DNA of 64,000 nt from Aradus depressus (taxonomy: Eukaryota > Arthropoda > Insecta > Hemiptera > Aradidae), in the NCBI GenBank assembly GCA_963662175.1, contig OY759222.1, forward strand, positions 13,650,222 to 13,714,221, written 5' to 3'. The notes under the pieces are model-generated. The model did no database searches and had not been told where the DNA came from. It saw nothing but the letters and a program-made list of their open reading frames with translations. The first letter of the stretch is position 1. Every line of letters begins with the position of its first letter. Below are positions 6,397 to 62,615 of the stretch, piece by piece. Both the position numbers and the translations under genes were made by a program.

Positions 6397-6607
6397 TTTT
6401 TCTTTCTTCATTTCACATTTTCTCTACAAAATCACCTCTGTTTTTATCAATGTTGCATCTTCTGCATAGATAAGCATTATCACTGGCCACGATTCTTTAA
6501 TATAATGTTTTATCCTTATTTATTATTATATTCTTTACTTTCTTGAAATTTTTTTATAATTTCTCTATTGATTATAAAGAAATTAACATCACATATTTGA
6601 TGGAGGA

Positions 6608-6932
6608 ATCATGCCCGGGCTTTAACTACGAGGTCATATCGCCTATTACCAGAGCGCTCTTTCGTCACTCTGGTGGACATGAGCCCAACTCTACTTTTTG
6701 AGTCCTTAATTTTGCCTATCCTAAATTTTTATTCACCAAGGGCAGGGGTCTTTAACGAGTACCTGACATCGTACAGGCTCGGGACCATCGCTTAACGTCC
6801 CATCCGAAGGACGGCGTGCTTAAGTTTATTTTACCTCCCAGATAAAATAAACTAAGGGCCTCGGTCGGGTTTCGGACCCACGATTTTGAGCTCAGAAGAC
6901 AAGCACGCATACTACTGAGCAACCGGCGCCCT
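6608..6932 (-). mobile_element. SINE-A copy, near full length
   Basis: Complete minus-strand copy from the GGGCGCCGGT head (6932) to the GGGCATGAT 3' end (6608). The tRNA-like A box region is slightly eroded (GTTGCTCAGTAGTATGCG), but the B box and the body, with the GGGACGTTAAGCGATGGTCC block, are preserved. Confidence 0.9.
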
Positions 6933-13344: not shown

Positions 13345-14345
13345 TCATACTAGCTAAACTCGCTATGCTTTGCAATAACTATTTTTGTATTTAAAAAATA
13401 ATAATTAAAATTAAAAATTGTCTCAAACCACTTTTTAAACCGTTCCAGTAATGTATCAAACATAACCCATAAGTTTGAGCGCAATAGCTTCGACAATTTC
13501 GCATCCTATAAGCTTCACACAGACGGACATTCATCGGGTTAAGGATAGGGTAGAAAGAAGTCTCAAACATTTTCAGTGCTCCATAGAATCCAATATTGAA
13601 CATTTTATGCCAATTCGTGCAATGATTCTTGTTCCATAAGCGAATCAACAAAATGCAGGGGTGGGTTCAGGGGTAAGGTAAGGATAGATTAGAAAGAAGT
13701 CTCAAACATTTTCAGTGCTCCATAGAATCCAATATTGAACATTTTATGCCAATTCGTGCAATGATTCTTGTTCCTTAAGCGAATGAACAAAATGCAGGAG
13801 TGGGTTCAGGGGTAAGGTAAGGGTAGGGTAGAAAGAAGTCTCAAACATTTTCAGTGCTCCATAGAATCCAATATTGAAAATTTTATGCCAATTCGTGCAA
13901 TGATTCTTGTTCCTTAAGCGAATGCACAAAATGTGGGGGTGGGTTCAGGGGTAAGGTAAGGATAGGGTAGAAAGAAGTCTCAAACATTTTCAGTGCTCCA
14001 TAGAATCCAATACTGAACATTTTATGCCAATTCGTGCAATGATTCTTGTTCCCTAAGCGAATGAACAAAATGCAGGGGTGGGTTCAGGGGTAAGGTAAGG
14101 GTAGGGTAGAAAGAAGTCTCAAACATTTTCAGTGTTCCATAGAATCCAATACTGAACATTTTATGCCAATTCGTGCAATGATTCTTGTTCCCTAAGCGAA
14201 TGAACAAAATGCAGGGGTGGGTTCAGGGGTAAGGTAAGGGTAGGGTAGAAAGAAGTCTAAAACATTTCCCGTGTTCTCGAGAATCCAATTCAAAAAGGTT
14301 TTATGACAATTCGTGCAATAATTTTTGTTCCATAAGCGAATCCAC
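13345..14345. repeat. Tandem array, 139-bp monomer, about six copies
   Basis: The monomer contains GGGTAGGGTAGAAAGAAGTC, TCAAACATTTTCAGTGCTCC, ATAGAATCCAATATTGAACA and TTCGTGCAATGATTCTTGTT. The last block recurs at about 13613, 13754, 13892, 14031, 14170 and 14308, giving a period of 138-141 bp. Outer units are the most diverged and the central four nearly identical, as expected from unequal exchange. The array is preceded by TACTAGCTAAACTCGCTATG (13349), which resembles the start of common non-autonomous repeats, so the array may be internal to a larger element. The 61-86 codon minus-strand frames here are shadows of the monomer. Confidence 0.92.
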
Positions 14346-14384
14346 GAAATGCTTAATGTAAAATAAAATTAATAAATATAAAAT

Positions 14385-19689: not shown

Positions 19690-20960
19690 TAGCTGTCGGT
19701 GAATCATCGGCAATGTATTTTTCCAACACGAATTATTCAATGAAGTTTTCGCTCTCCCTCAAAACCAATCGACAGTAAGTCTATAGAAACTAGTTTTGTG
19801 TCGATACATTCATTACATTGACATTTATTGGGGTTTTCGTGTTTAACCTCTCTCTTCGGCCGATTCTCTATCACAAGAAAAACACTATCCAATATTATTC
19901 ATATACTACACTCCTGCTCAGAATTAACGCACAACCCAGTATTTCTTCATTTTCTTTCGAGTGAACACTGGAGGACTGGAAGAGATTATTATTCTCAGAC
20001 GAAACTAGGGTTAGTCTGCATTCACCAGACGGACGTGAACGTGGGTGGAGAAGGGATTTGTCATCCATCTTGTTTGTCATCCAGGGTGCCTTTTGGAGAT
20101 GACTCAATAATGTTCTGGGGAGGGATTTCCACAAAGTTGACCAGCGTACCTAGACCAGCTCTGAACGCCCAAAGATACCTGACTGATATCCTTGAAGAGC
20201 ACGTAATGCCATTTCCTCCTTTAATCGGTCCAAATTTCATTCTGATGTACAATAATGCTCGTCCACATTATGCAACTACTGGACTACCTTCGAGAAGTTC
20301 GTATTGGCCTTCGAGGAGCCCGGACCTCAACCCAATAGAGCATGTCTGGGACATGGTAAAAAGAAGGATTCGAGCCCGGGATCCACCTCAGGATAACCTT
20401 GCTTAGCTGGATACTACTGTAAAGGAGGAATGGGATAATATCCCTCAGGAAGACCTCCAAAATCTGATCAGAGGGATGGAAAGAAGGCTCCAAGCTGTCA
20501 AATCTGCCAGAGGACTGAAGAAATCAAGAGGTTACAAAATCTTTTTTTTTTCAAATTTTCTTTCAATTTTCTTACCTAATGAAACTTTTGATTTTCTGTT
20601 CTTTGTTATTCAATACATTTTATTGCAGCAATATTGTGTTGAAATTGTTAATTTTCCACAGCATTTTAAATAAACCTTCAATAAAAATAGAAATTATAAG
20701 TTTAAAGTGAAAACAACTGAAGAAAATGAAAAATACTGGGCTGTGCGTTAATTTTGAGCAAGAGTTTATTAATATACATTAAGCGCAGTCAATTAATTAG
20801 AAAATAAACAAACAGTCGGTGAATATTTTCCTCAGCACGAATTTATTGTCATTATTAATCAGAGGGTAAAACATGAAATTTCGGTGAAAATTGGACGAAT
20901 TGACAGATTACGTAACTTCCCTTATACCTTGTAGCAATGTGGATCTCCCTACTTCGAAAT
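19690..20960 (+). repeat. Family X sequence split by a Tc1 element
   Basis: 19690-19905 holds the 5' half (GCTGTCGGTGAATCATCGGC, GTTTTCGCTCTCCCTCAAAA, GTGTCGATACATTCATTACA). After the Tc1 insert, 20815-20960 holds a second 5' start (CAGTCGGTGAATATTTTCCT) joined to the 3' end (ACATGAAATTTCGGTGAAAA, TAACTTCCCTTATACCTTGT). The region is therefore a composite of two family X pieces. Confidence 0.65.
19909..20766 (+). mobile_element. Tc1/mariner element, 5'-deleted, with degenerate transposase
   Basis: Inverted ends ACTCCTGCTCAGAATTAACG (left) and, on the reverse strand at the right, ACTCTTGCTCAAAATTAACG extend about 45 bp inward with few mismatches. TA flanks both sides. The transposase can be followed through frameshifts: LEDWKRLLFSDETRVSLHSP then DGRERGW (first D of the triad in FSDE), GDDSIMFWGGIS, LMYNNARPHYA, and WPSRSPDLNPIEHVWDMVKR with the catalytic E of IEHVW. 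In the second motif the catalytic aspartate (usually H/QDNARPH) is N. A TAG interrupts after DNLA (20404). At 858 bp the element has lost the N-terminal DNA-binding region. Confidence 0.88.
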
Positions 20961-21735: not shown

Positions 21736-22200
21736 ATAATAATAATAATAATTTATTTCGTTAAACCAATACATGGTAATATGATACGTCAAATGAATTT
21801 ATACATCAAGATAGCTTATATATTAGATACATAACTACTTGAGTCTAACACATCTGTGATTAGTAGTAACATAAAAACCATTAAAAAAGTAAAATGAAAT
21901 TAATAAAAACTGTACAAATAAATACTTAAAAATATATGGGTATATATAAAATAATAATAACAATACAAGATACGTTCATAAAAAGTAGACACATTTTTCA
22001 ATTTAATACAAATTAAGATAACTTTTTTTCAAAAAAAAACTCTTCGGATGTGTCTTTATCCCCCAACGATGTTACGGGACGTTCTTACGTCCCATCATCA
22101 GGTCCCAATGTGGCGAGATATAGAAAAGAAAGAAAACAATGTAACTATAACAATATATGAAAAATAATATATATATATATATAATTAGTCAATTATAAAT
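21725..22200 (-). repeat. Ribozyme family F repeat, copy 1
   Basis: Shares several hundred bases with 31910-32340 and 56960-57210: CGTTAAACCAATACATGGTA, ACTACTTGAGTCTAACACAT, AAATACTTAAAAATATATGG and TATAACAATATATGAAAAAT. It includes a hammerhead-like core on the minus strand at 22062-22102. Class inferred as the terminal repeat of a Penelope-like or similar element. No coding sequence is attached. Confidence 0.7.
22062..22102 (-). ncRNA. Hammerhead-like motif, family F
   Basis: Minus strand: CTGATGA (22101-22095), U, helix II GGGACG with loop TAAGAA and CGTCCC (six perfect pairs), then GTAA where the core needs GAAA, then CATCGTT. The copy at 32112-32146 keeps GAAA but has a mismatch in helix II. 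The two copies have decayed at different positions, which implies an ancestor with both intact. Confidence 0.6.
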
Positions 22201-22255: not shown

Positions 22256-23017
22256 TATTTATTTACCGATTATAAATATTCAAAATAAATAATTTATAAA
22301 CTTAAAAACAAAAACGGCATTTTCTTAAAATCGATGTCGTCCCCTTTCGCCTTGAAATGAGAGCTTTGAGGGAACTTGTAATTCCGCCAGAAAATAAAAC
22401 ATCACTTTGTTCTTCAAAATTACCACTTTTTTCAAAAGTCTGTTTAGAAGGGGGGCGCTTGTTTTACAACTTTAGACGCCTCATGTACATGTCTGAGTGT
22501 ACAAGTATGTGCTAATTGTAACGTTTTAATGAGACCAGACCTCTTCTTTGATATTAGTACTTTGAGCAGTCATCCCTAGTTTTTTCCCCCTTGGTTCCAT
22601 GGTACTTTGATACCAGCCGTGTTAATTATAGTACACAGTTTGTGATATTCAAACTATCGAAGGAAGAAGTCCATTGTCCTTCGCTCACTTTGATCTTCCC
22701 ATTATTACTTCATGCTAATACCAAGTATAGGGGAAGTTACGTAATCGGTCAATATTTGACGAGGTTAGAATCAAAATTACATTTTTGAAAATTTTTCAAA
22801 AAAGTCCAGAACCTGATACAAAAATGATAGTTCAGGAAAAAAGTTGTACAAGTGAAATCCTAGCCAGTGCTGAGATCTAGTGGCAAATCACTTATTCCAT
22901 TTTGGTGACATGAACAAGTAACTTAAACATATCAATAGTGACCTTGAAATTAATATTTTTATTCAATTTTTTGGTTTACTAACAGCAATTTTCACCATAA
23001 AACTTACTCTTACTCCG
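22256..23017. other. Spacer, nothing recognised
   Basis: AT-rich with pyrimidine-rich patches. The 65-codon frame at 22591-22788 carries no motif. Confidence 0.3.
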
Positions 23018-23125
23018 TTGGCGACGAACCCTGAAGATCCTTAGCCGCCCACACTAGCCTTCTCCACCGCGATCTGTCGTGCGCCACCGGTCGCCAGTTC
23101 ACCAAGTTCCACAGCATCAGAATTT
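23018..23125 (-). pseudogene. LINE reverse transcriptase, extreme C-terminus
   Basis: Minus strand reads MLWNLVNWRPVAHDRSRWRR then LVWAAKDLQGSSPTE and stop. W.P.A.DR..WR.LV..A...QG is the usual C-terminal end of RTE-group LINE proteins. Only about 35 codons survive. Confidence 0.6.
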
Positions 23126-23224
23126 ACCATAAAAGCAGAAGACAAAATATTTATAGATTTTTTAAATCAGTTAAGATGCACAGTTTCTTCAAAGTTTTAA
23201 AATTGTCATTTAGACCACTTTGAT

Positions 23225-23530
23225 TTCGGTCGAAGGGAAGGAAAGGTTCAACTCAAAAACCTTAATAACTGCCGAAGTAATGAATGTATCGACATGAAAT
23301 TTCAATTTTAAGTCAAAACCTATGAGAAGATAACCTGTCAAATTTCAGCGATATCGGTCGAAGGGAGCTCCCCCTCCCCTCAATTTGAAAACTCTAATAA
23401 CTGCCGATACAATGAATGTATCCGCACAATATTTAGTATGAAGATTCAGGAGCACATATGTAAGTCAACTGTTGAATTTTAGCTCAATCGTTCGACTGGT
23501 TTTGGAGATGGAGCGAAAAGTTAAATAATT
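23225..23530 (-). repeat. Family X copy
   Basis: Reverse orientation: CTTAATAACTGCCGAAGTAA, TGAATGTATCGACATGAAAT, TTAGTATGAAGATTCAGGAG, GTTTTGGAGATGGAGCGAAA. The AATAACTGCCGATACAATGA block occurs twice (23265 and 23395), as in other long copies where the consensus carries two related halves. Confidence 0.75.
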
Positions 23531-23690
23531 GATATGTGATAATAAGATATTATTCTTGGACGAGATTTCTCATAGAAATAAAATACTGACATTATAGCAG
23601 AGATATTGTGAAATAAATCAAATGAACTTGAAAGAAATAAAACTTGTTTATTTATAATATTGTCTAATTTCACCAACTATATTTACATGG

Positions 23691-23720
23691 GAGTACTTTC
23701 GGTATTTCTACCATCCTCAG
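23691..23720 (-). ncRNA. Hammerhead ribozyme-like motif, family K (left arm)
   Basis: Exact reverse-complement copy of the 23899-23928 motif, with the same core, helix II GGTA/TACC, GAAA loop and AGTACT helix III. If both arms are transcribed together, the RNA would fold into a long hairpin that hides both motifs. If they are transcribed separately, either could form the core. Confidence 0.72.
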
Positions 23721-23898
23721 CCAAAAGCATAAGAGATAAGACTAAGTTAATATTACAGAATGTCAGCCTCTCGAGGAACCCCTGGTGTTCCCCATGACGT
23801 CAGACATTCCTAACTAAGCTAAATTGTCAAGCTGTGAAATATTTTATGACAAGGCGGTTCACATTTGAAATATGGGGTCTTATCTCTTATGCTTTTGG

Positions 23899-23928
23899 CT
23901 GAGGATGGTAGAAATACCGAAAGTACTC
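23899..23928 (+). ncRNA. Hammerhead ribozyme-like motif, family K (right arm)
   Basis: CTGAGGA (23899-23905; core position 7 is variable in hammerheads), U, helix II GGTA (23907-23910), GAAA loop, TACC (23915-23918), GAAA (23919-23922), then palindromic helix III AGTACT (23922-23927) and the cleavage-site base C 23928. Helix I starts with three pairs, TGG 23896-23898 with CCA 23929-23931. All invariant core bases are present. The self-complementary six-base helix III is the design of hammerheads that act as dimers. An exact inverted copy lies at 23691-23720. Activity is untested. Confidence 0.72.
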
Positions 23929-24059
23929 CCATGTAAATATAGTTGGTGAAATTAGACAATATCATAAATAAACAAGTTTTATTTCTTTCAAGTTCATTGA
24001 AATAAAATACGTTGTCTTCCCACTGTAATGTAAACAAACCCGTTGCCAAGACAACCGAT

Positions 24060-24830
24060 GTCGAAGCGACGTTATTTTTTTGGAATCCATTTGAAAAAAA
24101 GAAACAGAAAATAAAGAAGAAAGAAACCTAAAGATGAAAAAAAAATAAAATAGAAAATCAAATGGAAATCTGAAGAACAAAACAAGTTTAAAAGGAAATA
24201 AAATACAGTAAAAGTAAAGAAAAGGTAGCTTTAGGCCTAACCTTACAGTTATCAACTAACATTTTAAATAATAATTACAAGATCCACCGACTTCAAAAGG
24301 AAACTAAATTTTCAGAAGGGATTAATTTAGCACCCAGAAACAAAATGAAACAGCTAAAAAGAAGAGGAATGAAGAAAATTTCAGGAAGTTATAAGCAAAA
24401 TTAAGAAAAGGTCAATAATTAAAAAACGAGTCGGTAGAAGGTTGTGAAAATTTTTAGGAAAAGACAGTTAATTATTAAGAAAAGATTAAAGAAGAAAAAG
24501 AAGAGAAAAACTGCCCACATCAGAAAGAAAAGCCAGTAGTAAATTTTGAAGAAACGGTCAGTTCTAAAATACATCGAATCAACTAGGCCGGATCCCATCT
24601 GAAATAATACAAGTGATCCGAAAGTGTATACCACAAACTTTAAACACTGTTTTCGAGAAATGAAGAAGGCAAAATTAAAAAGAAAAGTTACAGAAAATTA
24701 AGATGACAATTTAGAAAAGAGAAGAAACGGAAGAAAGGAGAGAAAACACCAAAAAATATTAATATTTAGAAGTAAAACAAGAGACAACAAAAAAAAGAAA
24801 CTCGAATTTGCTACCCATAATTCCGTGCGG
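24060..24830. other. A-rich, purine-biased tract
   Basis: Almost all AAGAAA/GAAAAG-type sequence on the + strand with few pyrimidines. The minus-strand frames (23962-24255, 24419-24634) translate to F/L/S-rich composition only. A similar tract closes the window (63411-64000). Nothing functional is claimed. Confidence 0.5.
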
Positions 24831-25989
24831 AGGCAGTTTAGTGAGTCTATGTTGGGTTCTGGTAGAGGTGGAACCTATGAGAGACTAGTCTCTATATTTT
24901 TTGACAATTTCAGTGAAAAGAGTGAGTTAACATGTTAAAGTGAGTACTAAGTGAATAGTGAAGGGTAGAGAGGATGCGGGAAGAACGTGCACCTCATAAT
25001 GTATGTTAAAGGAGTAGAATTTGTAAATATATTTCAAGGGTGACGTCACGAGGTAGGATTCATTTTATTTTTTGTATATATTTCAATGGCCAATTTTCAA
25101 GTTCGAAGTTTTTTTTTTATTAAAATAGTTTTCATTGTAAATATGTTTTGATTTTTTTTGATTCCCCATATCTCTCTCAATGAAATTCAAATCTCAAAAC
25201 TCATAGGCCTTGCGAATCAACACCTTTGAGATAAGCGCCAATCGTTATCGGGACATAATATTTAATAATCTTTATTTTCAGAATCACACCGGGAGACTTT
25301 TGGATTTTTGGATTGGTGCGAGTAACGTAGTTTGAAAATTTTACAGAGTTATTTATAACATATGTTTTTCATTTTTTTTAAGAGCTTCACTCAACCATAT
25401 GGTAGATTATTTTATTTTTGAAATTATAGAGTTAACTTAAATTTTTTTTATTATTCAAAATTTTATTCATTTTTTAAATTTATTGTGAAATCCATCAAGT
25501 CAATAACAGACATAAAACCTTTCACCACAGTTTCATTTTTTGACCAGAACCGGTTTCCAGTGGTAAAGATGCTACAAGTGAAGTTTCATGAAAATCTATT
25601 TATATATATGTATATATGAAAATATAGTCGTTTAGGCGTGATGTTGGAACAAACCAACAAACAAATCCCGTTTCAGCTTTATTAATATAGATATTTAATA
25701 ATTTTAGAATACTAAAATCTGACCCAAGGAGTTATTAATCAATTGGTTGTATGAAAGTAAAAAAAAAAAATCTTTTAAAAACTTAATATCAGGATGAGGC
25801 GGATAGAAAGAAAAAAATAAGTAAATAATAAATAAAAAAAATAAAAAATTTAATTAAATATTTTCCTTTTCCTTCGGAAATTTGTATAATCATTACAAAA
25901 TTCGTTATCTTCAAAATTAATGCATCGATTTCGACATTTGGAATACTGTGCGTCAGTAACTTGCAAGATAAGGGGTTAAGCAATTTTGA
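24831..25989. other. AT-rich spacer with a possible short repeat end
   Basis: 25550-25690 ends AAATCCCGTTTCAGCTTTAT then TAATATAGAT, which resembles the 3' end of family W-like short elements (AGCTTTATATATAT). The rest shows no gene or shared repeat. Confidence 0.3.
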
Positions 25990-27062: not shown

Positions 27063-27410
27063 ATAATTTATTTAGTTTTCCATTAAAATGTTTGTATTAT
27101 TTCTATATGCAAGAAAGGAATGGAAGGAATTTAATTTAATTTATTTATTTATTTTGTTTAGAAAGTGAATGTGGTGCAAAAATTTTTTGTATTAACGGGG
27201 TATTGTGAGGGGAGGGGGGGAGGTCATTATTTTTATACGTTTGGAGAGTCACAACCTCAGGTAATGTCAGCATTGTATAAATATACCAACGTACAATCTT
27301 AAATGTTGCTAATGATATTTATCATTCTTGTAGAGATATTGTGAAACAATAAAAAATATAAAGAAAAACATATGTTTTCTAAAAATATTGTCTATTCATA
27401 AAATATATAG

Positions 27411-27755
27411 AGGGCGCCGGTAGCTCAGTGGTATGCGTGCTTGACTTCTGAGCTCAGGAACGTGGGTTCGTAACCCGACCGAGGCCTTTAGTTTATTTTA
27501 TCTGGGAGGTAAAATAAACTTAAGCACGCCGTCCTTTGGATGGGACGTTAAGCGATGGTCCCGAGCCTATACGATGTCAGGTACTCGTTAAAGACCCCCA
27601 CCCTAGGTGAATAAAAAATTTAGGGTAGGCAAAATTTAGGACTCCCACAGTAGAGTCGGGCTCATGTCCACCAGAGTGACGAAAGAGCGCTCTGGTAGTA
27701 GGCGATATGATCTCGTAGTTAAAGCCCGGGCATGAGTCATAAACCCTAACCCTAT
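27411..27755 (+). mobile_element. SINE-A, full length
   Basis: Near-consensus copy from GAGGGCGCCGGTAGCTCAGT to CATAAACCCTAACCCT. The tail unit is CCCTAA and not CCTAA. The target duplication is unclear because the flanks are A/T-rich. Confidence 0.96.
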
Positions 27756-27812
27756 AAAAAACATGTCAGCCACGACTCAACAAATGCAGTATTTACACAG
27801 TATTTAAGTCGG

Positions 27813-27842
27813 CTGAAGATGGTAGCAATACCGAAAATACTC
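27813..27842 (+). ncRNA. Hammerhead-like motif, family K (diverged)
   Basis: CTGAAGA (27813-27819), U, GGTA, GCAA loop, TACC, GAAA (27833-27836), then AATACT in place of the palindrome AGTACT. The core is intact, but helix III has one disrupted pair, so it is weaker than the 23.9-kb copies. Confidence 0.6.
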
Positions 27843-28084
27843 CCATATATTTTATCTATTTTGTGCAGACAATATTTTTTTTTTAACATTATTTTTTCTT
27901 TATATTTTTAAAAATGTTTATGTTGGTACTCTTTGTTTATGTTTCGTGTTAATAGTGACCAGAGCGGCTAATGTCCTCATTTCCTGGAGAATATGTACAT
28001 ACATTTCTAAAGAAACTTGGGTAATGTTGATAAAGTCTTTAATCTGATTTTTATCGTTAGAATACATGAATTGATTTGTTCTTT

Positions 28085-28830
28085 TTACACTTCTCCAGAA
28101 CGAATTAATCAATTAACTTTTCGTTCCCGCTGCAAAACCAGCATAGAGGCTCCTAAATCCTCATAATAAATTTTGTTTTGATAAGTTCATTATATCGGCA
28201 GTTATTGAGGGCGCCGGTCGCTCAGTGGTATGCGTGCTTGACTTCTGAGCTCAAGATTGTGGGTTCGTAGCCCGACCGAGGCCCTTCGTTTATTTTATCT
28301 GGGAGGTAAAATAAACTTAAGCACGCCGTCCTTCGGATGGGACGTTAAGCGATGGTCCCGAGCCTGTACGATGTCAGGTACTCGTTGAAGACCCCTACCC
28401 TAGGTGAATAAAAATTTAGGGTAGGCAAAATTTAGGACTCCCATAGTAGAGTCGGGCTCTTGTCCACCAGAGTGACGAAAGAGCGCTCTGGTAGTAGGCG
28501 ATATGACCTCGTTGTTAAAGCCCGGGCATGAGTCATAAACCCTAACCCTAACCCTCGGCAGTTATTAGAGCTTTGTGTTAAGCTACCTAATTTCCCTCTT
28601 CCCTTTGGTCAATTTGGCTGAAAATTAATAGTTGTTGTCTTTAGAAGGTTTTGGATTCATGTCGATACATTCATTTTATCGGGAGTTATCGTATTCACAA
28701 ACACACGTTTTTTTTTTCTATATTTTGAATCTGGAGATGGAAAAACATGAATTTCCGTTGAAAACACCGCATTTTTTGATCGATTACATAACTGCCCCTA
28801 TACTTCGTATAGTTGAAGAAGTAAAAATCA
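28085..28830 (+). repeat. Family X copy, near complete, split by SINE-A
   Basis: 28085-28206 and 28556-28830 join exactly once the SINE and one copy of CGGCAGTTATT are removed. The right part runs through GTCGATACATTCATTTTATC, GGGAGTTATCGTATTCACAA and GAATCTGGAGATGGAAAAAC to TACTTCGTATAGTTGAAGAA plus GTAA, one of the best-preserved family ends in the window. Confidence 0.85.
28207..28555 (+). mobile_element. SINE-A, full length with target duplication
   Basis: A 349-bp copy flanked by CGGCAGTTATT (28196-28206 and 28556-28566). Head GAGGGCGCCGGTCGCTCAGT, B box GTGGGTTCGTAGCCCGAC. The tail ACCCTAACCCTAACCCT is the longest telomere-like run in the window. The intact family X flanks fix both ends to the base. 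Confidence 0.97.
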
Positions 28831-29283: not shown

Positions 29284-29800
29284 TAGCCGGTAGCTCAGTG
29301 GTATGAGTGCTTACCTTCTGAACTCAAGATCGTGGATCGAAACCCTTTTTTTGGGGGGGACCTCTGTCATCAGTCCCGGCAGGCCAGTCCCAGGATCCTG
29401 TTTGACGAATCAGCGCCGTCCTGGGCACGTCGTATAGCGGGCATTCGAGAACTACGTATTCCGCAGTCTCGACGCCGCCACACGAGCAGGCATGGCTGTT
29501 CTTCTTCTTAAAGTGGATTCGAAACCCGGCCGAGGCTCTTAGTTTATTTTATATGTGAGGTAAAATAAACTTAAGTACGCCATCCTTCGGATGGGACCTT
29601 AAGCGATGGTCCCGAGCCTGTACGATGTCAGCTATTCATTAAAGACCCCTAACCTAGGTGAATAAAAATTTAGGGTAGGCAAAATTTAGGACTCCCACAG
29701 TAGAGTCGGCCTCATGTCCATCAGAGTGACGAAAGAGCGCTCTGGTAGTAGGCGATATGACCGCGAAGTTAGAAGCCCAGGCATGAGTCATAATAACTAA
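29284..29800 (+). mobile_element. SINE-A copy split by a LINE fragment
   Basis: 29284-29345 is the tRNA-like head up to the B box. 29513-29800 repeats the B box (GTGGATTCGAAACCCGGCCG) and continues to GCATGAGTCATAATAACTAA. The duplicated GTGGAT(T)CGAAACCC on both sides of the insert is its target duplication and falls inside the Pol III B box, so both halves were inactivated as a transcription unit by the insertion. Confidence 0.92.
29346..29512 (-). pseudogene. R1-like LINE 3' end inserted into a SINE
   Basis: Minus strand reads HACSCGGVETAEYVVLECPL then YDVPRTALIRQTGSWDWPAG and ends in a poly-A (seen as TTTTTTT at 29346-29352 on +). It is related to the larger fragment at 11530-11925 (HVVLELPLYDGPRAALI). 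Only 167 bp long, 5' truncated, with a 14-15 bp target duplication (29332-29345 and 29513-29527). It postdates the SINE it interrupts. Confidence 0.85.
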
Positions 29801-29806
29801 CTAGCT

Positions 29807-30541
29807 GTGGTGCTCAACGTGGCTCATCATATACTAGCTGTGGTCCCCAGCGTTTCTCAGCTTGCACTAGTTGTGGTACCCAGCGTTCCTCAGCCTATAC
29901 TAGTTGTGGTGCTCAACGTTGCTCGGCATTTACTGGCTATAGTGGCCAGCATTTCTCGGCTTGTACTAGTTGTGGTGCCCAGCGTTTCTCAGCCTATACT
30001 AGCTGTGGTGCTCAACGTTGCTCGGTATATACTAGCAATAGTCCCCAGCGTCTCTCGGCTTATACTAGTTGTAGTGCCCAGCGTTCCTCAGCCTATACGA
30101 GATGTGGTGCTCAACGTTGCTCGGCATATACTAGCAATAGTCCCCAGCGTCTCTCGACTAATACTAGTTGTGGTGCCCAGCGTTCTTCAGCATATAACAG
30201 CTTTGGTGCTCAACGTTGCTCGCCATATACTAGCTATAGTCCCCAGCGTTTCTCGGCTTATACTAGTTGTGGGGTCCAGCGTTTCTCAGCCTATACTAGC
30301 TGTGGTGCTCAACGTTGCACGGCATATACTAGCTATAGTGCCCAGCGTTGTACATCTTATACTAGCTGTGATGCCCCGCGTTGCTCGGCATATATTATCT
30401 GTGTTGCCCAGCGTACCTTCGCATGTATCATCCATGTCCTAGTACTAGTTTTTCTAGTTAGCCAGTTAGGCATATACTAGCTGAGGTGCCCAATGTTACT
30501 TGGCATACACTAGCTGTGGTGCCAAATGTTGCTAAGCACAT
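29807..30541 (+). repeat. Minisatellite, 33-bp monomer, about 22 copies, open in one frame
   Basis: The monomer has the form TATACTAGCTGTGGTGCTCA followed by ACGTTGCTCGGCA. Three variant monomers (CTCAACGTTGCTCGGCA, CCCCAGCGT.TCTCGGCT, CCCAGCGTTTCTCAGCC) alternate to give a 99-bp higher-order unit. As 33 is divisible by three, a frame stays open for 211 codons (29807-30442), encoding an 11-residue repeat such as ILAVVPSVSRL. No promoter, homology or splice context supports a protein, so it is listed as a repeat. It starts at the very end of a SINE-A copy. Confidence 0.9.
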
Positions 30542-31909: not shown

Positions 31910-32340
31910 AATAATATTAAATAACACACCTGAGACTAGTAGTAATAGCAAAACTATTAAAAAAAGTAAAATGACATTAATAAAAACTGAACAAATAAAT
32001 ACTTAAAAATATATGAGTACATAAAAAAATTAATACAAGATACGTTTATAGTAAGTAGACACATTTTAAATTAACTATTTTTCAAAAAAACTCTTCGTGT
32101 CTTGATCCCAACGATGTTTCGGGACGATCTTACGTCTCTTCATCAGGTTCCAATGTGCGAGATATAGAAAAGAAAAAGAAAACCATGACATGGTTTAACC
32201 ATGACATAGTTACATTGTAACTATAACAATATATGAAAAATAATATATATACCTATATAAAGATTAATCAATTATAAATGAATATATAAAAATGTCTAAA
32301 TAAATAAAAAATTATAAATAAAACAATAACATACATTCAC
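31910..32340 (-). repeat. Ribozyme family F repeat, copy 2
   Basis: Same family as 21725-22200: AAACTATTAAAAAAAGTAAA, AAATACTTAAAAATATATGA, CTCTTCGTGTCTTGATCCCA, CATCAGGTTCCAATGTGCGA, TATAACAATATATGAAAAAT. A local duplication, ACCATGACATGGTTTAACCA, is unique to this copy. The core motif at 32112-32146 is on the minus strand. Confidence 0.7.
32112..32146 (-). ncRNA. Hammerhead-like motif, family F copy 2
   Basis: Minus strand: CTGATGA (32146-32140), A, GAGACG, TAAGAT, CGTCCC (five of six helix II pairs), GAAA (32120-32117), CATCGT with a two-pair helix III (AC/GT) closing on ATC. The catalytic GAAA lost in copy 1 is intact here. Confidence 0.62.
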
Positions 32341-33656: not shown

Positions 33657-33834
33657 TATAAGTAGATGAATAATAAATAAATAATCTAACAAATTAAGTA
33701 GTAATACAATTTATTTATTATATCTCTAATAATAAACGACGAGCTGAAAATAAATCAATAATATAAGAAGGATGATGATAAAAATACCGAAAGTAGGTAC
33801 TTCAATAATATTGTGTGAATATATTAGTTAGTTA
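33657..33834. repeat. Spacer with eroded family K ribozyme repeat
   Basis: 33760-33805 reads AAGGATGATGATAAAAATAC then CGAAAGTAGGTACTTC, recalling the family K core (GGATGGTAGAAATACCGAAAGTAC) with helix II destroyed. No other feature. Confidence 0.4.
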
Positions 33835-34170
33835 GTTATTATGACTCATGCCCAGGCTTTAACTACGAGGTCATATCGCCTACTACCAGAGCGCTCTTTC
33901 GAAACTCTGGTGGACATGAGCCCGACTCTACTGAGGGAGTCCTAAATTTTGCCTACCCTAAATTTTTTATTCACCTACGGTAGGGGTCTTTAACGAGTAC
34001 CTGATATCGTACAGGCTCGGGACCATCACTTAACGTCCCATCCGAAGGACGACATGCTTAAGTTGATTTTACCTCCCAGATAAAATAAACTAAGGGCCTC
34101 GGCCGGGTTTCCAACCCACAACCTTGAGCTCAGAAGGCATGCATGCATACCACTGAGCTACCGGCGACCT
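33835..34170 (-). mobile_element. SINE-A, near full length
   Basis: Minus-strand copy from GAGGTCGCCGGTAGCTCAGT (34170) to TGAGTCATAATAACTAACTA (33835). B box GTGGGTTGGAAACCCGGC slightly changed. Confidence 0.94.
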
Positions 34171-34734
34171 CGTGAATCATACTTTTTTCTTTATGCTTAA
34201 TTTTTTTATTAAAAGTGTTTTACAATATCTCTACAGAAAATGTTACTGATCATTAAGTTCAGTATCCTCTTTGGAGAAGTAGGTACATTGTCGGTGACTT
34301 ACCTAACACTTTTTTTTTTCTATTAATGCATAATAATGCGAGTTTTTAATAAGATGCATAAATCATAAATTCACCCAAGGAAGAACAAAGACAAGAAGCA
34401 ATGCGAATGGAAATAAATCATTGGATCTTGGAAGTAATTTCTTTTAAGAAGCTTATCCCTGGAGAAATCTAGGTTTCGGCATATACATATTTGCACTATA
34501 TATCAGTGTCTACTGACGCATGAATTTCGCCAATTCAGCTGTACGAGGTATGTGGTTATCAATTTAAAAAAATTGAATAAAAATACCGTTTATTGTAGTT
34601 ATTTTTCTTCCGAACGAAAAATTGAAAATTATATTAATAATAAATCAGAGCGGTAAAATGGCGATCCTCGATCAATTAATTTTTTGGAGATATGGTACTA
34701 ATATAAGAACATACCGTTTTTGTATTCACTCCAA
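34171..34734. other. AT-rich spacer
   Basis: 34200-34225 (TTTTACAATATCTCTACA) is the reverse complement of the family K edge motif TAGAGATATTGTGAAA. Otherwise unremarkable. Confidence 0.35.
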
Positions 34735-39041: not shown

Positions 39042-41030
39042 ACTAATAATAATATAGTAGATATATTAGATCAACATTTCAGATGTTGAAATCTACGAAT
39101 TGAAGATCAGAAATCCAAGAAATACGGTCTGGAAAGGCTTTTGGAGCATACTCTAAGGATTTGTATACAAAGTCGTGCGTTTTTTTATTTCTGAAATGAA
39201 ATCGCAGAACTTTTGGCTCCCGTTTGAAATGGGAGACATGAGACAATTGTTAGACAATGTTGCGCAATATTCCGGAGTGTGGACGCTGAGGATGCTGTCT
39301 TCTAATTTCAGTGTTGAAAGTAAACTGCAACCGAAACGAGGTGCCTCCGCAAAATTTTCTTTCCACCAACGTCTTCTTGGACGTTTCATTTCATTGTTCA
39401 TGATTATAACTTTTTTTTTTCGTACTCCATTTATGTATTAATTCATAAATATATATGAATGTTTACCTGCAATTAGCTTATAATTATTTATACATACTAT
39501 AATGTAATTAAAGTGCGACTTGAGAAATTTAGTGTATGTGGCAGTGATGTTGGTTGGGTCGGACATATTGGAAGAATGGATGGGATGAACAGAAAGATCC
39601 TGAGTTTTTTAGCGTGGCTTGTAGTTGTTTGGCGTCCCTCTTCAGGAGTCCCCGTTGTGGTAGTTGAAGTTATGAGTGTTGATGATGTGTATATGATTCC
39701 CCTTATATGATTCCCAAACTTTTATGTCGTGTACACTGGTAAAGGAGATTTAAGAAGACCAGGAGAAGAAGCAACAAAAGGAGAGAAGAGTCGTGAAACC
39801 CATCCATACAACTTTATACACGAGGTTTAGTTTATTGTATATATTTTATTTTTAAGTTATTTTGTATAAATATATTCTTTTTATTATGAGTTTTAGATTT
39901 TAGTAGTTTGTTTCCCATACTCGAACCTAGTCAATAGTAAATTAACAATTCAGTTTTTCAAAACTTTCTTAGTTGATCGAACTTTCGTCTTTGGTTTATA
40001 GAAATGTAGGCCCTGTGGCCTCCCCTCCCCCCATTAAGTTGGAGGAATTGGGATGGCAGATAATCGGGGTGTTTCGAGGGGTCTCGAGTTGAAAGCTATT
40101 TTATTATTATAATTATTTTGTACATATTTTGTATATATTATTTATTTTGTATATAGTTTATCTTAATTTGTGTATATTTCCATTGTATTTATTATTATTA
40201 TTTTTATTTATTTATTTTTATTTTTTTCTATATATTTTTTTTTTTTTTACACTCACTGTTATCAAATTTATTTATAATTATATTATAACTGATTGTAGAT
40301 ATACCAAATAAACAAAAAAAAATTAATTAAAGTTTATAGAAATCAAATTTATATATTAAAATCAGTAATTTAAGTATCGTTCTATTAGATAGGCGATCTG
40401 GCATCCCATTAATATTTTATCTGAGTAAAAATCAGTTATACAGTTTAAGAAAATCTCCGCGTATTTGAAGTAAAGTAAAAGAATAAAGATATTTATAATA
40501 AGAACGCGAACAATCAATATATTACAATACCTTCCCAAAACCTTTCAGAGATTGTATAATGGTTACACACACAATCTGTGATGTAGCTTGCTTCGATATC
40601 CTAAAAGTGTACATTATGTGAACGGTTCTCCACTTTCCACAAAACGCAGTGTCGTTGCCAGTCTCAGAGATGCTGGAATATGGTTTCTCTGCATCTACTT
40701 TCTCCTTTGTTTATATTTCTTCCTAAAAGCTGAAGCAATACTTGCAATTCACTTTTGGTCAAACGAGTGAAGTTTCGAAAAACACATTTTGTCTTCTAAT
40801 TTCAGTGTTTAAAGTAAATTGCAACCGAAAACCGTCTCCTTGACCGGTTCATTTCATTGTTCATGATTAGAATTGGGCAAGCAGCGATCTCAACAAGTCA
40901 TGTAACTAAAACGAGTAACAGTGCAGTCTAGATACACGTCTATAGACAGTCTCTATACACGTCTTTAGACAATCGCTCAACTTTGTATACAAGTGTGTAT
41001 GTAACCTAAATAACGATTATAAAAACTTTT
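39042..41030. other. Mostly unclassified; short repeat pair and a possible LINE scrap
   Basis: CTTCTAATTTCAGTGTT.AAAGTAAA.TGCAACCGAAA and TTCATTTCATTGTTCATGATTA occur at 39298-39405 and again at 40793-40867, a local duplication. 39540-39605 translates to WVGHIGRMDGMNRKIL, similar to the RLRW.GH..RM motif of RTE LINEs, but it is too short for certainty. 40129-40311 is T/A-rich and its frame is compositional. Confidence 0.35.
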
Positions 41031-41092
41031 TTCACAGGATGTCAAATATATGATAGTCTGACCTCTCACAAATTTTTATTGGTAGTAATAGC

Positions 41093-41124
41093 TAGCCGGC
41101 TTTCGAGGTTTCCCTCATCATCAG
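41093..41124 (-). ncRNA. Hammerhead ribozyme-like motif, family A (left arm)
   Basis: Reverse-complement twin of 41149-41180 with the same core, helix II GAGG/CCTC and AGCCGGCT. No change is seen in the 32 bases, showing either recent origin or conversion between the arms. Confidence 0.72.
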
Positions 41125-41148
41125 GCTTTCAATTTTTTATCAGACTGC

Positions 41149-41180
41149 CTGATGATGAGGGAAACCTCGAAAGCCGGCTA
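41149..41180 (+). ncRNA. Hammerhead ribozyme-like motif, family A (right arm)
   Basis: CTGATGA (41149-41155), U, GAGG (41157-41160), GAAA loop (41161-41164), CCTC (41165-41168), GAAA (41169-41172), palindromic helix III AGCCGGCT (41172-41179), cleavage-site base A 41180. Helix I begins with two G-C pairs (GC 41147-41148 with GC 41181-41182). Every invariant core base is present. The mirror copy on the left arm occupies 41093-41124 on the minus strand. The eight-base self-complementary helix III would favour a dimer. Activity is inferred only. Confidence 0.72.
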
Positions 41181-41242
41181 GCTATTACTACCAATAAAAA
41201 ATCTGTGAGAGGTCAGACTATCTTATATTGACATCCTGTGAA

Positions 41243-42524
41243 ATAACCACTTCTCACTACATCAGCCATCTTCATATTATTATAAAAACTGGTAATTCGA
41301 CAAGCTTTCTTGAAAGAGTGCTCTCTGAAAGGTAAATAAAATGAGGTTCCTTGAACTCAAATCTGAGCAATCTAAGGGCAAAAACCTCGGAAACTCTATA
41401 ACACTGCTCTATTTACAGGACTGTTGGAAACCTATAAAAGCTTTGTCACAGAAAGGTTTTCTCAGAATGTAGCCTTGAGAAAGGTAAAGAGAGATGCATA
41501 GAGGAAGATGTCAGGTAGATAACAAACCAGGATACAAACTTCTCAAAATACTTTCAAAAGATCCATAGAAAAAAATGAAACTTTGGGAACTTCTGAGAAA
41601 AGCCAAACAGTCTTGAGATGGGACACTCTAAACTTGGTATAGTAGTGCAGATCCACTTTCTGAGTTGCACTATTCTAAGTGACTTGGAGGATGAACAGGG
41701 AAGCTATTTATGGAGAACCAGGAACAGGATTCCGAAGACTACATGTTCTGCAGTCTCCCATCTGTTAATAAATAACATAGACTAGATTTCAAAAAAAAAA
41801 TATATATATGTATATATTTATTTTCAAATACAAGGGCCAGTCGGCGTAGTTATAATAAAAACAAAGATAAACAGAAATTATCCTCCTGATGTGGAGGGGA
41901 GAATGTGGAAGATGGGCTGATGAACTGATCCCCAAACAAGGGCGAGAAGGATGGCTGAGAAGATCTGGGAGTAGGCTGAGGACGTCACACCAGATGAACC
42001 AGGTACCAGACTTCAGAGGTCGACAGAAAGGCGATCCGTGTTGACGAGAGAAGTCGGCGGGTTGGTGGCCTTGAGGAGTGCCCTGATGTCAACAGACTGA
42101 AGCAACATGGAAGACTCTGTGTCCAACACTGTCCAGCGGTCATAGAACGAACTTCTCCCCACTCCCACATTCATAGGCTCCTCCCACAAATTGTTAATAT
42201 GATCAGATTATGTAAAATGAAACTTAATAATAAATTATAGAAATAATATTGACAATAATTGTAATAATAATAATATTAATAATTATTAGAATTATTAATT
42301 AAATAAAACATAAAAAAAAAACCTCTAACAAAATCGAAATGAACTGAATGTAACACCATCTGAGTCGCAACTGCCCCCATCCATGACATTTTAAATTGTT
42401 AATGTTGTAAGTTTTTTTGATTTTTGATGCACGTTTATTTAAATTTTTTAAAAATTTTAAATATTTTTTTTATTATTTTAATTATTAAGACATTTTAATT
42501 ATGTTATTTTCAAAACTATTTTAT
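41243..42524. other. Single-copy sequence, no gene recognised
   Basis: 41250-41790 is balanced and non-repetitive, but all frames are short. 41880-42170 is GC-richer; minus-strand frame 41985-42170 and an alternative frame (NVGVGRSSFYDRWTVLDTES) carry no motif I know. 42180-42520 is very AT-rich. Confidence 0.3.
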
Positions 42525-42600
42525 CAGATTATGAGGGCAACATCGAAAGCCGGCTAGCAAATATAAATAAAATCTGTGAGAGGTCAAACTATATTTTAAT
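42525..42600 (+). repeat. Ribozyme family A repeat, single diverged copy
   Basis: CAGATTATGAGGGCAACATC, GAAAGCCGGCTAGC, AATCTGTGAGAGGTCAAACT. CUGAUGA has become CAGATTA and helix II is weakened, but the GAAA-AGCCGGCT-A part is intact. Confidence 0.65.
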
Positions 42601-49059: not shown

Positions 49060-49940
49060 GGTGGCCTTCCACTCCTTCCCTTCTGTAAATATGTGAGAAC
49101 ATGGATGGAGGTCTGGTCGACACCCGTCTCCTAGGTAGGGCCGCCAGTAGGACAGAACACTGACATACCGTCCTTCCACTTTGTCCCTTCTGTACATATG
49201 TGAGAACATGGATGGAGGTCTGGCTGACTCCCATCTCCTAGGTAGGGCCGCCGGTAGGACACAACATAGACATATCATCCTTCCACTCCGTCCCTTCTGT
49301 ACATATGTGAGAACATGGATGGAGGTCTGGTCGATACCCGTCCTCCTAGGTAGGGCCGCCGGTAGGACAGAACACAGACATATCATCCTTCCTCTCCTTC
49401 CCTTCTGTACATATGTGAGAACATGGATGGAGGTCTGGTCGATACCCGTATCCTAGGTAGGGCCGCCGGTAGGACATAACACAGACATATCATCTTTCCT
49501 CTCCTTCCCTTCTGTACATATGTGAGAACATGGATGGAGGTCTGGTCGATACCCGTCCTCCTAGGTAGGGCCGGCGGTAGGACATAACACAGACATATCA
49601 TCTTTCCTCTCCTTCCCTTCTGTACATATGTGAGAACATGGATGGAGGTCTGGTCGATACCCGTCTCCTAGGTAGGGCCGCCGGTAGGACAGAACATAGA
49701 CATATCATCCTTCCACTCCGCCCCTTCTGTACATATGTGAGAACATGGATGGAGGTCTGGTCGATACCCGTCTCCTAGGTAGGGCCGCTGGTAGGACACA
49801 ACACAGACATATCATCCTTCCTCTCCACTCGGTCCCTTCCGTACATATGTGAGACCATGGATGGAGGTCTGGTCGATACCCGTCTCCTAGGTAGGGCCGC
49901 CGGTAGGACAGAACACAGACATATCATCCTTCCACTCCGT
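49060..49940. repeat. Minisatellite, 107-bp monomer, eight units
   Basis: GTGAGAACATGGATGGAGGT starts at 49093, 49200, 49307, 49415, 49522, 49630 and 49737; a variant (GTGAGACCATGG) starts at 49849. The period is 107-108 bp, with the last spacing stretched to 112. Units contain TCGATACCCGTCTCCTAGGT and AGGGCCGCCGGTAGGACA and are over 90% alike by eye. The frames on both strands (49009-49386, 49181-49456, 49383-49601) are shadows of the monomer. Confidence 0.95.
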
Positions 49941-49987: not shown

Positions 49988-50235
49988 GTAAATAAAAAAC
50001 TCAATATTTGGCCAATGTTTCGGAAACCAATTATTCCCTTCTTTAGGAGCTTATAATGACTTGTTTACATGTGTATGGTGCAGGTGGTTTGTGTTTATGT
50101 CTCATAGTGTATCTCTGTTAGTCCACTATCAGACACAAATATATATACACATCCACTCAAGTCATTATAAATAAGGCCCTGAAGAAAGAAAGAAATAGTT
50201 TTCGAAACGTTGAGTTTTTTTATTTATACGACAGA
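49988..50235. repeat. Inverted pair of ribozyme family J repeats
   Basis: 49988-50068 (GTCGTGTAAATAAAAAACTC, GTTTCGGAAACCAATTATTC, TTATAATGACTTG) is inverted relative to 50154-50235 (AAGTCATTATAAATAAGGCC, CTGAAGAAAGAAAGAAATAG, TTTTCGAAACGTTGAG). The right arm keeps a recognisable core: CTGAAGA, a purine-rich helix II closing on TTTTC, GAAA, CGT-T. The left arm is more decayed. Spacer 86 bp. Confidence 0.7.
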
Positions 50236-50500: not shown

Positions 50501-51108
50501 TGGAAGTTGTTCCTAACATCTCTCAAGTCATGACCTGAGATGAGAGAAGACAAGACTTGAGGTGATCTTACAACTTAATAGAGGGACTTACCATATAAGG
50601 GAGTGGACCCCTCAAGTGGCTGCATAGCACCCGAGGGCCTACTTGGGGCTTAGAGTCACCAATGAAAAACAAAGTGGGGAATTTATCACCTCGAGAAGTG
50701 TGGGGAGCCAGCTTGAAAGAAAACCAGCTACGTGAGCCCAACTCCGGCCTTCCTCACTCGCCAACTTCTCAACCATTTCGTCCGTTTCGTTTGCCCTTTC
50801 GAAACTTATCTTGAACTTTAATAATCCCTCAGTATAGGTCAGAAATTCACTGGAATATCATGTGTTGCGCCGTTCTTATTTGGCGCGAGTCAGCTGTTTT
50901 TAAAATAGTTTTTTTTTTTATTAATGATTTTTCTTATAAACAAAGATTTTTTCTGGCATTTTTTCCAGAGTTTCTTTTCAACGAACGACCAAAAGTTGTT
51001 CATAGTGACCAGAAGAAGGGACGTGAAAGTGTCCCGAAATATTGTCAGAAAGGAGAAGACACCTCGGGAAAAAAAAACAGAAAAAATGAACATATTAACA
51101 TCGCAGAG
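50501..51108. other. Single-copy spacer
   Basis: Balanced composition to 50830, then AT-rich. Overlapping frames on both strands (50860-51168) arise from A-rich DNA and the start of SINE-B. No gene is called. Confidence 0.35.
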
Positions 51109-56017: not shown

Positions 56018-56667
56018 TTCTAGGAATAGATAATTAAAATACACAATTTCTTTGTCAAACTTCACTATATATTCTCAAATACTCAACTAGTTTCGCCGTG
56101 TTAAGGCATTATCAAGAGTCACTTACACTTACACCAACTGACAGAATTGGTTGACAGGGTAGAAGGTACAGTTACGGAGGGGGTTTTTAGGTAATGACGG
56201 GGAATCCCTTGTTTTTGTTACTCTATACATTCCAATAAACAGATATTTACAAGATAATAATAAATATAAAATAAAAAGAAGAAAGAAAAAATATATATAT
56301 ATAAAATCTAATAAAGCGAATCTAACAGTAAAGTCATACCTATATAAATACCAACACTTTACTGTTAGATTCGCTTTATTAGATTTTATATATATATATA
56401 TTTTTTCTTTCTTCTTTTTATTCTATATTTATTATTATCTTGTAAATATCTGTTTATTGGAATGTATAGAGTAACAAAAACAAGGGATTCCCCGTCACTA
56501 CCTAAAAACCCCCTCCATAACTGTACCTTCTACCCTGTCAACCAATTCTGTCAGTTTGTAAGTGACTCTTGATAATGCCTTAACACGGCGAAACTAGTTG
56601 AGTATTTGAGAATATATAGTGAAGTTTGACAAAGAAATTTTGTATTTTAATTATCTATTTCTAAAAT
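56018..56667. repeat. 650-bp near-perfect palindrome, ribozyme family H
   Basis: Arms 56018-56334 and 56356-56667 (about 312-317 bp) are reverse complements with few differences (for example an extra CTTACA near 56128, TACGGAG/CTCCATA) around a 21-bp loop. The outer third of each arm carries a hammerhead-like core (plus at 56569-56601, minus at about 56083-56115). Loop-proximal ends read AGCGAATCTAACAGTAAAGT. The size, symmetry and ribozyme position fit two full terminal repeats fused head to head. It is the longest palindrome in the window. Confidence 0.93.
56569..56601 (+). ncRNA. Hammerhead-like motif, family H
   Basis: TTGATAA (CUGAUGA with C3 and G8 changed; 56570-56576), U, GCC, TTAACAC, GGC, GAAA (56590-56593), palindromic helix III ACTAGT, cleavage-site base T. 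Helix I pairs four bases (ACTC before the core with GAGT after the cleavage site). Structure is preserved better than the catalytic bases, so it is probably an inactive descendant. The mirror copy in the left arm has the same changes. Confidence 0.5.
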
Positions 56668-61890: not shown

Positions 61891-61919
61891 ATGATTTGTT
61901 TATGAGGGTGTTGAACAAA

Positions 61920-62615
61920 AATGAACATGCTTCATCATGTATAATGCCTGCAAAAACAAAAATAGACATGCTTCATCATGTATAATGCCTGCAAAAACAA
62001 AAATGGACATGCTTCATCATGTATAATGCCTGCAAAAACAAAAATGGACATGCTTCATCATGTATAATGCCTGCAAAAACAAAAATGGACATGCTTCATC
62101 ATGTATAATGCCTGCAAAAACAAAAATGGACATGCTTCATCATGTATAATGCCTGCAAAAACAAAAATGGACATGCTTCATCATGTATAATGCCTGCAAA
62201 AACAAAAATGGACATGCTTCATCATGTATAATGCCTGCAAAAACAAAAATAGACATGCTTCATCATGTATAATGCCTGCAAAAACAAAAATGGACATGCT
62301 TCATCATGTATAATGCCTGCAAAAACAAAAATGGACATGCTTCATCATGTATAATGCCTGCAAAAACAAGAATAGACATGCTTCATCATGTATAATGCCT
62401 GCAAAAACAAAAATGGACATGCTTCATCATGTATAATGCCTGCAAAACAAAAATGGACATGCTTCATCATGTATAATGCCTGCAAAAACAAAAATGGACA
62501 TGCTTCATCATGTATAATGCCTGCAAAAACAAAAATGGACATGCTTCATCATGTATAATGCCTGGAAAAACCAAAATGGACAGGCTTCATCATGTATAGT
62601 GCATGCAAAAACCAT
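61920..62615. repeat. Minisatellite, 41-bp monomer, about 17 units
   Basis: TGCTTCATCATGTATAATGC followed by CTGCAAAAACAAAAATGGACA. Period 41 bp; most units are identical, with scattered G/A changes (AATAGACATG) and one unit missing an A (CTGCAAAACAAAA). Edge units are the most diverged. Confidence 0.96.

What the first reader, a model, noticed from the sequence alone, without database searches (positions are those of the whole stretch)
23621..23998. Complete hammerhead-ribozyme cores in a head-to-head inverted pair (family K)
Seen: two 30-base motifs, one per strand, with CUGAGGA, a four-pair helix II (GGUA/UACC) with GAAA loop, GAAA, a self-complementary AGUACU helix III and a three-pair start of helix I. 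All invariant hammerhead bases are present. They sit in 122-bp arms that mirror each other. Known: animal Penelope-like elements and retrozymes carry minimal hammerheads with short palindromic helix III that act as dimers. Inferred: this is a terminal-repeat pair from such an element, of a family I cannot name.
Basis: partly seen in the sequence, partly recalled or inferred. Interest (0 to 1): 0.8.

Follow-up and report, generated by a model that had tools for sequence, protein, structure and literature searches.

The report
Inverted pair of hammerhead-bearing retroelement ends
A short, dead-looking mobile-element remnant carries two mirror-image copies of a minimal hammerhead (self-cleaving RNA) motif, most likely of the kind already known from Penelope-like retrotransposons, so it is probably a new copy of a known kind of thing.

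Summary
Two identical 30-nt hammerhead cores (23899-23928 + and 23691-23720 -) sit in 122-bp, 99% complementary arms, 134 bp apart. It makes an AUG inside the ribozyme, much as the ORF of the Anolis Penelope-like element (PLE) starts at stem II of a hammerhead that cleaves in vitro only with its protein. Rfam finds nothing for K, even permissively. Chance is unlikely: strict cores occur five times here (three loci, two families) and in none of 400 simulated windows.

More lie in the window: a diverged copy (27813), a second family (M) in the same head-to-head layout at 41.0-41.2 kb with four solo fragments, and decayed relatives at 22.1, 32.1, 50.0-50.2 and 51.0 kb. Head-to-head inverted pseudo-LTRs with short target duplications are described for PLEs.

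Best reading: a solo pair of inverted PLE-type ends. Membership is inferred from layout and ribozyme variant; no PLE gene was seen, but only 6 of 11 long ORFs were scanned and the host genome could not be searched. A transcript of the pair alone folds into a hairpin, so dimer action does not follow from this locus.

The parts
23621..23742 (-). Left arm: tail, hammerhead and upstream part of the element, reversed
   Evidence: 122 nt, 99% complementary to 23877-23998; aligned
23691..23720 (-). Hammerhead core, minus strand; predicted cut after C17 at 23691
23743..23876 (.). 134-bp spacer between the arms; no second copy in the window at E<=0.01
23877..23998 (+). Right arm: upstream part, hammerhead, tail
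23899..23928 (+). Hammerhead core, plus strand: CUGAGGA-U-GGUA/GAAA/UACC-GAAA-GUAC-U-C; predicted cut after C 23928
23905..23907 (+). AUG made by A9, the extra U (23906) and G10.1; opens a 14-codon frame only
   Evidence: sequence; translation
23610..23617 (+). Left half of a candidate 8-bp target-site duplication GAAATAAA (TCA lies between it and the arm)
23999..24006 (+). Right half of the candidate duplication GAAATAAA, abutting the arm
27811..27849 (+). K3: diverged single copy of the same family (90% over 39 nt), GCAA loop, helix III palindrome broken
41027..41126 (-). Family M, left arm of a second head-to-head pair (core starts at 41124)
41147..41246 (+). Family M, right arm (core starts at 41149)

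Best explanation
The locus is a solo, head-to-head pair of inverted ends (pseudo-LTRs) of a Penelope-like retroelement or of a small non-autonomous derivative of one. Each end carries a minimal type I hammerhead with a self-complementary helix III and one extra U before helix II. Shown: the inverted pair, the cores, related copies in the window. Inferred: element RNA was reverse-transcribed from a start site in the tail downstream of the hammerhead, and two copies joined by their upstream ends, either because both strands of the target cut were extended or because the first cDNA folded back and primed itself. In the parent element the hammerhead would cut element RNA after C17, in trans or as a tandem dimer. 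In this inverted copy cleavage is probably suppressed by the hairpin.
For: Cores confirmed and non-random. A second family, M, in the same layout, with four solo fragments (42527+, 52466-, 15203-, 11978+); no partner arm of M type was listed beside any of the four. The M spacer matches the upstream sequence of solo copy 52466 (0 of 200 shuffles as good) and more weakly of 42527 (7 of 200), while the upstream side of the reversed arm does not (160 and 200 of 200); against 11978 both arms score alike (1 of 200 each) and do not discriminate. So the M pair looks like two copies of one element joined directly, one about 20 nt longer. Candidate 8-bp duplication at K. In print: PLE inverted pseudo-LTRs, head-to-head most often, duplications of 8, 9 and 10 bp in named cases and none in others, a short tail (PMC3846280, passages). 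A PLE hammerhead overlapping the ORF start, cut 26 bp after the start codon (here the 24th nucleotide), and a protein that cuts and extends both target strands (PMC11167929, passages). Minimal type I hammerheads in PLE pseudo-LTRs that may cleave as dimers (PMC7761336, passages).
Against: No RT or GIY-YIG frame was seen, on a limited look: 11 ORFs of 120 aa or more were listed and 6 of 11 scanned against Pfam, giving a DDE_3 and a weak zf-RVT match. The AUG opens only 14 codons in K, 8 in M and 30 in K3. The target duplication leaves 3 unexplained bases on the left, and its length was chosen after looking. Rfam finds nothing; the held-out model gives only E 1.2 for K. By BLAST only 2 of the 4 solo M fragments run on into the tail region, so a constant 3' end is not established. 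The host genome was never searched, so no full-length parent is known.
Confidence: 0.7

Rival explanations
1. A foldback or MITE-like DNA transposon with 122-bp terminal inverted repeats that contains a hammerhead-like sequence and was moved by a transposase.
For: Long near-perfect inverted repeats, short spacer and a candidate 8-bp flanking duplication. A Tc1/mariner-like transposase remnant elsewhere in the window.
Against: Single-ended relatives of both families: K3 and four M fragments, though decay could also remove one arm. The M spacer continues the upstream sequence of one arm. The left duplication does not abut the arm.
Confidence: 0.15
2. A non-autonomous metazoan retrozyme: a small circular-RNA element with type I hammerheads in tandem.
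For: Type I hammerhead in a small non-coding unit; retrozyme-like repeats are reported from insects and crustaceans among others (PMC7229834, passages).
Against: No direct repeat of the core in 22500-25500; the two K cores are inverted; helix III does not close in one molecule.
Confidence: 0.07
3. Hammerhead-like by descent but catalytically dead (this can be true together with the best explanation): the extra U, 3-bp helix I and lack of a monomer helix III leave a relic whose role, if any, is recognition by the PLE protein.
For: The minimum-energy fold of the 61-nt stretch is not a hammerhead and no better than shuffles (z -0.07). In the Anolis PLE the hammerhead cut only with protein added, and hammerhead mutations did not change insertion in vitro (PMC11167929).
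Against: Core letters are intact in both K and both M arms. Helix II pairs vary together between families (partly circular). A 2023 paper says that known hammerhead alignments hold insertions of at most one or two bases between CUGANGA and its stems (PMC10085705, passage), so one base is within range. A viroid hammerhead with an extra core base is cited as De la Pena and Flores 2001 (title only; that it lies after A9 is my recollection).
Confidence: 0.3
4. Chance likeness in AT-rich DNA, doubled by an inverted duplication.
For: One inserted base and a short helix I are needed to make it fit; no Rfam match.
Against: 0 strict cores in 400 simulated windows against three loci of two families here.
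Confidence: 0.03

Closest known systems
Minimal type I hammerheads of Penelope-like elements (Cervera and de la Pena 2014; Lunse, Weinberg and Breaker 2017: neither held, known from citations and from passages of PMC7761336 and PMC6155905)
   Same: Small core in element ends, helix III lacking or reduced, action as dimers proposed
   Different: Here only a solo inverted pair with no element body; family not matched to a named one; their consensus letters were not seen, so the extra U could not be compared
Poseidon PLE of Anolis carolinensis (PAc; PMC11167929, passages)
   Same: ORF starts at stem II, C3 and G8 before the start codon, cut 26 bp downstream (here the 24th nucleotide); enzyme extends both target strands
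   Different: PAc has a full ORF; here the frame stops after 14 codons. PAc letters were not seen
Adineta vaga Penelope inverted pseudo-LTRs (PMC3846280, passages)
   Same: Head-to-head inverted ends, short tail, 8-10 bp target duplications in several cases
   Different: Those described mostly flank an ORF or captured DNA; the search listing counts 0 uses of 'hammerhead' in that paper
Palindromic-helix-III hammerheads, e.g. Aedes aegypti (PMC3088659, passages and section 8)
   Same: Helix III and its loop are palindromic and could pair fully in a dimer
   Different: No insertion after A9 is mentioned in the text I read; figures not held
Metazoan non-LTR retrozymes (PMC7229834, passages)
   Same: Type I hammerhead in a small non-coding repeat
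   Different: Tandem direct repeats

Membership tests
Hammerhead ribozyme, type I | Invariant core C3 U4 G5 A6 N7 G8 A9 / G12 A13 A14 A15.1 / U16.1 H17 | tested here: met
   All letters present in both arms, plus one inserted U after A9
Hammerhead ribozyme, type I | Three helices around the core | tested here: inconclusive
   Helix II 4 bp; helix I 3 bp; helix III only as a 6-nt palindrome between molecules; the monomer fold does not show the hammerhead
Hammerhead ribozyme, type I | Covariance-model match (Rfam) | tested here: not met
   No match at gathering or at E<=10; family M is not matched as a hammerhead either, so the models may not cover this variant
Hammerhead ribozyme, type I | Self-cleavage at C17 | not testable with these tools
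   Needs in vitro transcription
Penelope-like element | RT plus GIY-YIG endonuclease ORF | tested here: inconclusive
   Not seen, but only 6 of the 11 ORFs of 120 aa or more were scanned, and a search of the own genome did not complete; a solo end pair would lack the ORF anyway
Penelope-like element | Hammerhead in the pseudo-LTR near the ORF start | tested here: inconclusive
   Hammerhead and AUG in place, but the frame closes after 14 codons
Penelope-like element | Inverted or tandem pseudo-LTRs, short target duplication, 5'-truncated copies | tested here: inconclusive
   Inverted pair met; duplication has a 3-nt gap; solo relatives exist but their ends are blurred by decay
Metazoan retrozyme | Tandem direct repeats of about 150-400 bp with a hammerhead each | tested here: not met
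   No direct repeat of the core in 22500-25500
Terminal-inverted-repeat DNA transposon or MITE | Fixed inverted termini with an exact duplication abutting both ends | tested here: not met
   Left duplication is 3 nt away; relatives are single-ended

The most novel reading that the evidence does not exclude
Head-to-head joining of hammerhead-bearing ends at their 5' truncation points, seen in two families and perhaps a third, decayed one in a single 64-kb window, is the genomic product of extending both strands of a PLE target cut. The solo inverted pairs then act as ready-made hairpin RNA sources that both silence their parent elements and mask the ribozyme.
Probability: 0.07. Interest if true: 0.55.

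Novelty: new member of a known kind. Interest (0 to 1): 0.27.

Why it matters
Minimal hammerheads in PLE ends and inverted PLE ends are both in print. What this window adds is several divergent hammerhead families side by side. All 8 aligned cores carry one or two extra bases before helix II, and three sites show head-to-head joints, one of them decayed. That is raw material for asking how PLE cDNA copies are joined and whether the ribozyme can work in the inverted form.

Tried and rejected
Rfam at gathering and permissive thresholds: nothing for K; for M 17 matches, none of them a hammerhead, mostly miRNA-type hairpins that reflect the inverted repeat. Public collections: exact and degenerate K patterns gave 0 in viral contigs and 0 in genome contigs; the M pattern 0 in viral contigs. 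These collections are viral or prokaryotic, and the tool warns that the window's own genome may be left out, so the zeros say little about animals. A general pattern gave 7 viral-contig stretches, 2 of 7 with four helix II pairs (L003, L004; one pair is fixed by the pattern), which by my estimate is not far from chance; not followed further. Dimer fold by energy: the hand-drawn dimer could not be scored by the program, so no energy is claimed. Helix II covariation is partly circular: 5 of the 8 aligned cores (22101, 32146, 50046, 50179, 51010) were found by a scan that asked for pairing; K, K3 and M were found by a pattern that did not. A model built without K, from 9 other cores, ranks K3, K-, K+ and 33771 just below members of its own families, at E 0.64 to 1.5. 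The spacer of K has a weak internal inverted repeat that 9 of 200 shuffles equal. The agreement of outer ends within each pair follows from how the arms are defined and is not used as evidence. Pfam was run on 6 of the 11 long ORFs only; the 44 shorter ones were listed, not scanned.

Full report
What is there. The + strand at 23899-23928 reads CTGAGGATGGTAGAAATACCGAAAGTACTC and the same 30 letters lie on the - strand at 23691-23720. They lie in arms 23621-23742 and 23877-23998, 122 nt, 99% complementary, 134 nt apart. In hammerhead numbering (recalled): C3 U4 G5 A6 G7 G8 A9, one extra U (23906), GGUA/UACC closed by GAAA, G12 A13 A14 A15.1, GUAC, U16.1, C17 (23928). Helix I begins UGG/CCA. AGUACU is self-complementary, so helix III cannot close in one molecule but can between two.

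Chance. The looser pattern expects 0.01 matches per shuffled window and finds 2. A stricter one with paired helix II gave five matches here (K twice, M twice, K3 once; three loci, two families) and none in 400 Markov windows. Rfam does not recognise K and does not call M a hammerhead.

Neighbours. K3 at 27811-27849 is 90% identical to K over 39 nt, with a GCAA loop and a broken helix III palindrome. Family M forms a second head-to-head pair at 41027-41126 and 41147-41246 (95%) with CTGATGA-U-GAGG/GAAA/CCUC-GAAA-GCCGGC-U-A, and four solo fragments at 42527+, 52466-, 15203- and 11978+, none with an M-type partner arm listed beside it. By BLAST two of the four (42527, 52466) run on through the tail; 15203 and 11978 stop earlier. 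Decayed relatives: two copies of a repeat at 22101- and 32146-, a head-to-head pair at 50046-/50179+, and one at 51010+. In the alignment of eight cores helix II pairs in 93.8% of cells (0 of 500 shuffles reach this), with changes on both sides in three of four pairs (14 of 500 shuffles reach that), above the slid versions. Five of those eight were found by a scan that asked for pairing, so this is support only in part. A covariance model made without K finds K3, K- and K+ as the best hits outside its own families, but at E 0.64 to 1.2, which is not significant.

How the pair arose. The upstream sequence of the M + arm matches that of solo copy 52466 (0 of 200 shuffles as good) and less strongly 42527 (7 of 200), and the match runs up to about the point where the reversed copy begins; the upstream side of the - arm matches neither. 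Against 11978 both arms score the same, 1 of 200 each, which does not discriminate. So the M pair looks like two copies of one element joined by their upstream ends, one about 20 nt longer. For K the spacer has no relative in the window and cannot be assigned. K has a candidate 8-bp flanking duplication, GAAATAAA at 23610-23617 and 23999-24006; on the left three bases lie between it and the arm. Random places share an 8-mer in 12-base flanks in 22 of 20,000 trials; the choice of eight was made after looking. This fits what is in print for Penelope elements of Adineta vaga: inverted pseudo-LTRs, most often head-to-head, duplications of 8, 9 and 10 bp in named cases (none in others), a short tail, and self-priming as a proposed cause (PMC3846280, passages). 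It also fits the purified Anolis PLE protein, which cuts and extends both target strands and starts copying inside the RNA (PMC11167929, passages). The present data do not choose between fold-back priming and two primed strands.

The extra U. In the Anolis PLE the ORF starts at the start of stem II, C3 and G8 lie before the start codon, and the cut is 26 bp downstream; the hammerhead cut only when protein was added. K has the same plan: A9-U-G is an AUG and C17 is the 24th nucleotide from its A. The frame closes after 14 codons in K, 8 in M and 30 in K3, so no element protein is encoded. The AUG is present in K, K3, M and the 22101 copy and absent at 32146, 50046, 50179 and 51010, so the inserted base is more general than the AUG. 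[quoted passage not shown] A 2011 survey discusses other core insertions, some of low activity, and common weak stem III (PMC3088659, section 8 and passages).

What it does now. A transcript of the pair alone holds one core and one complement. The predicted fold is a hairpin over the whole arms (-226 kcal/mol over 383 nt), so the pair cannot supply a tandem dimer in cis. K3 lies on the + strand 3.9 kb downstream of the right-arm core, so a long transcript could hold both; with its broken palindrome that partner is doubtful. Whether any RNA is made is unknown.

What I could not do. The host genome could not be searched, no full-length parent was seen, and the host is not identified. The two primary papers on PLE hammerheads are not held and are known here only as cited by others. 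A literature search for hammerhead, head-to-head and Penelope together found 0 papers in the held library; this says little about print at large. No RT or endonuclease frame was recognised, but only 6 of 11 long ORFs were scanned. PLE membership therefore rests on layout and on the hammerhead variant, not on a gene. After this check I lowered the best explanation from 0.72 to 0.70 and raised the DNA-transposon rival from 0.13 to 0.15, because a constant 3' end of the M copies is not established.

Noticed in passing
41027-41246: Second head-to-head hammerhead pair (family M) with palindromic helix III AGCCGGCU; four solo fragments at 42527+, 52466-, 15203-, 11978+
   Followed up: yes
22066-22103 and 32111-32148, minus strand: Two copies of a dispersed repeat with CTGATGA and a 6-bp helix II; one has GUAA for GAAA, the other a helix II mismatch
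   Followed up: partly
50011-50048 (-) and 50177-50213 (+): Third, decayed head-to-head pair of hammerhead-like cores (about 64% identity between sides); one has G5 changed
   Followed up: partly
51008-51045: Hammerhead-like core with U4 changed (CAGAAGA), 6-bp helix II
   Followed up: no
33771-33795: Weak 25-nt likeness to the K core (88%; E 1.5 with the held-out model)
   Followed up: no
56133-56306 and 56386-56559: 174-nt inverted repeat, 97% complementary, 79 nt apart; the relaxed scan listed no hammerhead core there
   Followed up: no
27410-27750, 33831-34171, 6606-6932, 28208-28534 and others: Dispersed repeat with a tRNA-like start, perhaps a SINE (one search shows 25 of 170 pairs; ARAGORN calls no tRNA)
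   Followed up: no
61914-62612; 49065-49940; 13540-14352; 29800-30414: Tandem arrays of 41, 107, 139 and 33/99 bp units
   Followed up: no
19822-20406: Transposase fragment with a DDE_3 match, probably Tc1/mariner-like
   Followed up: no
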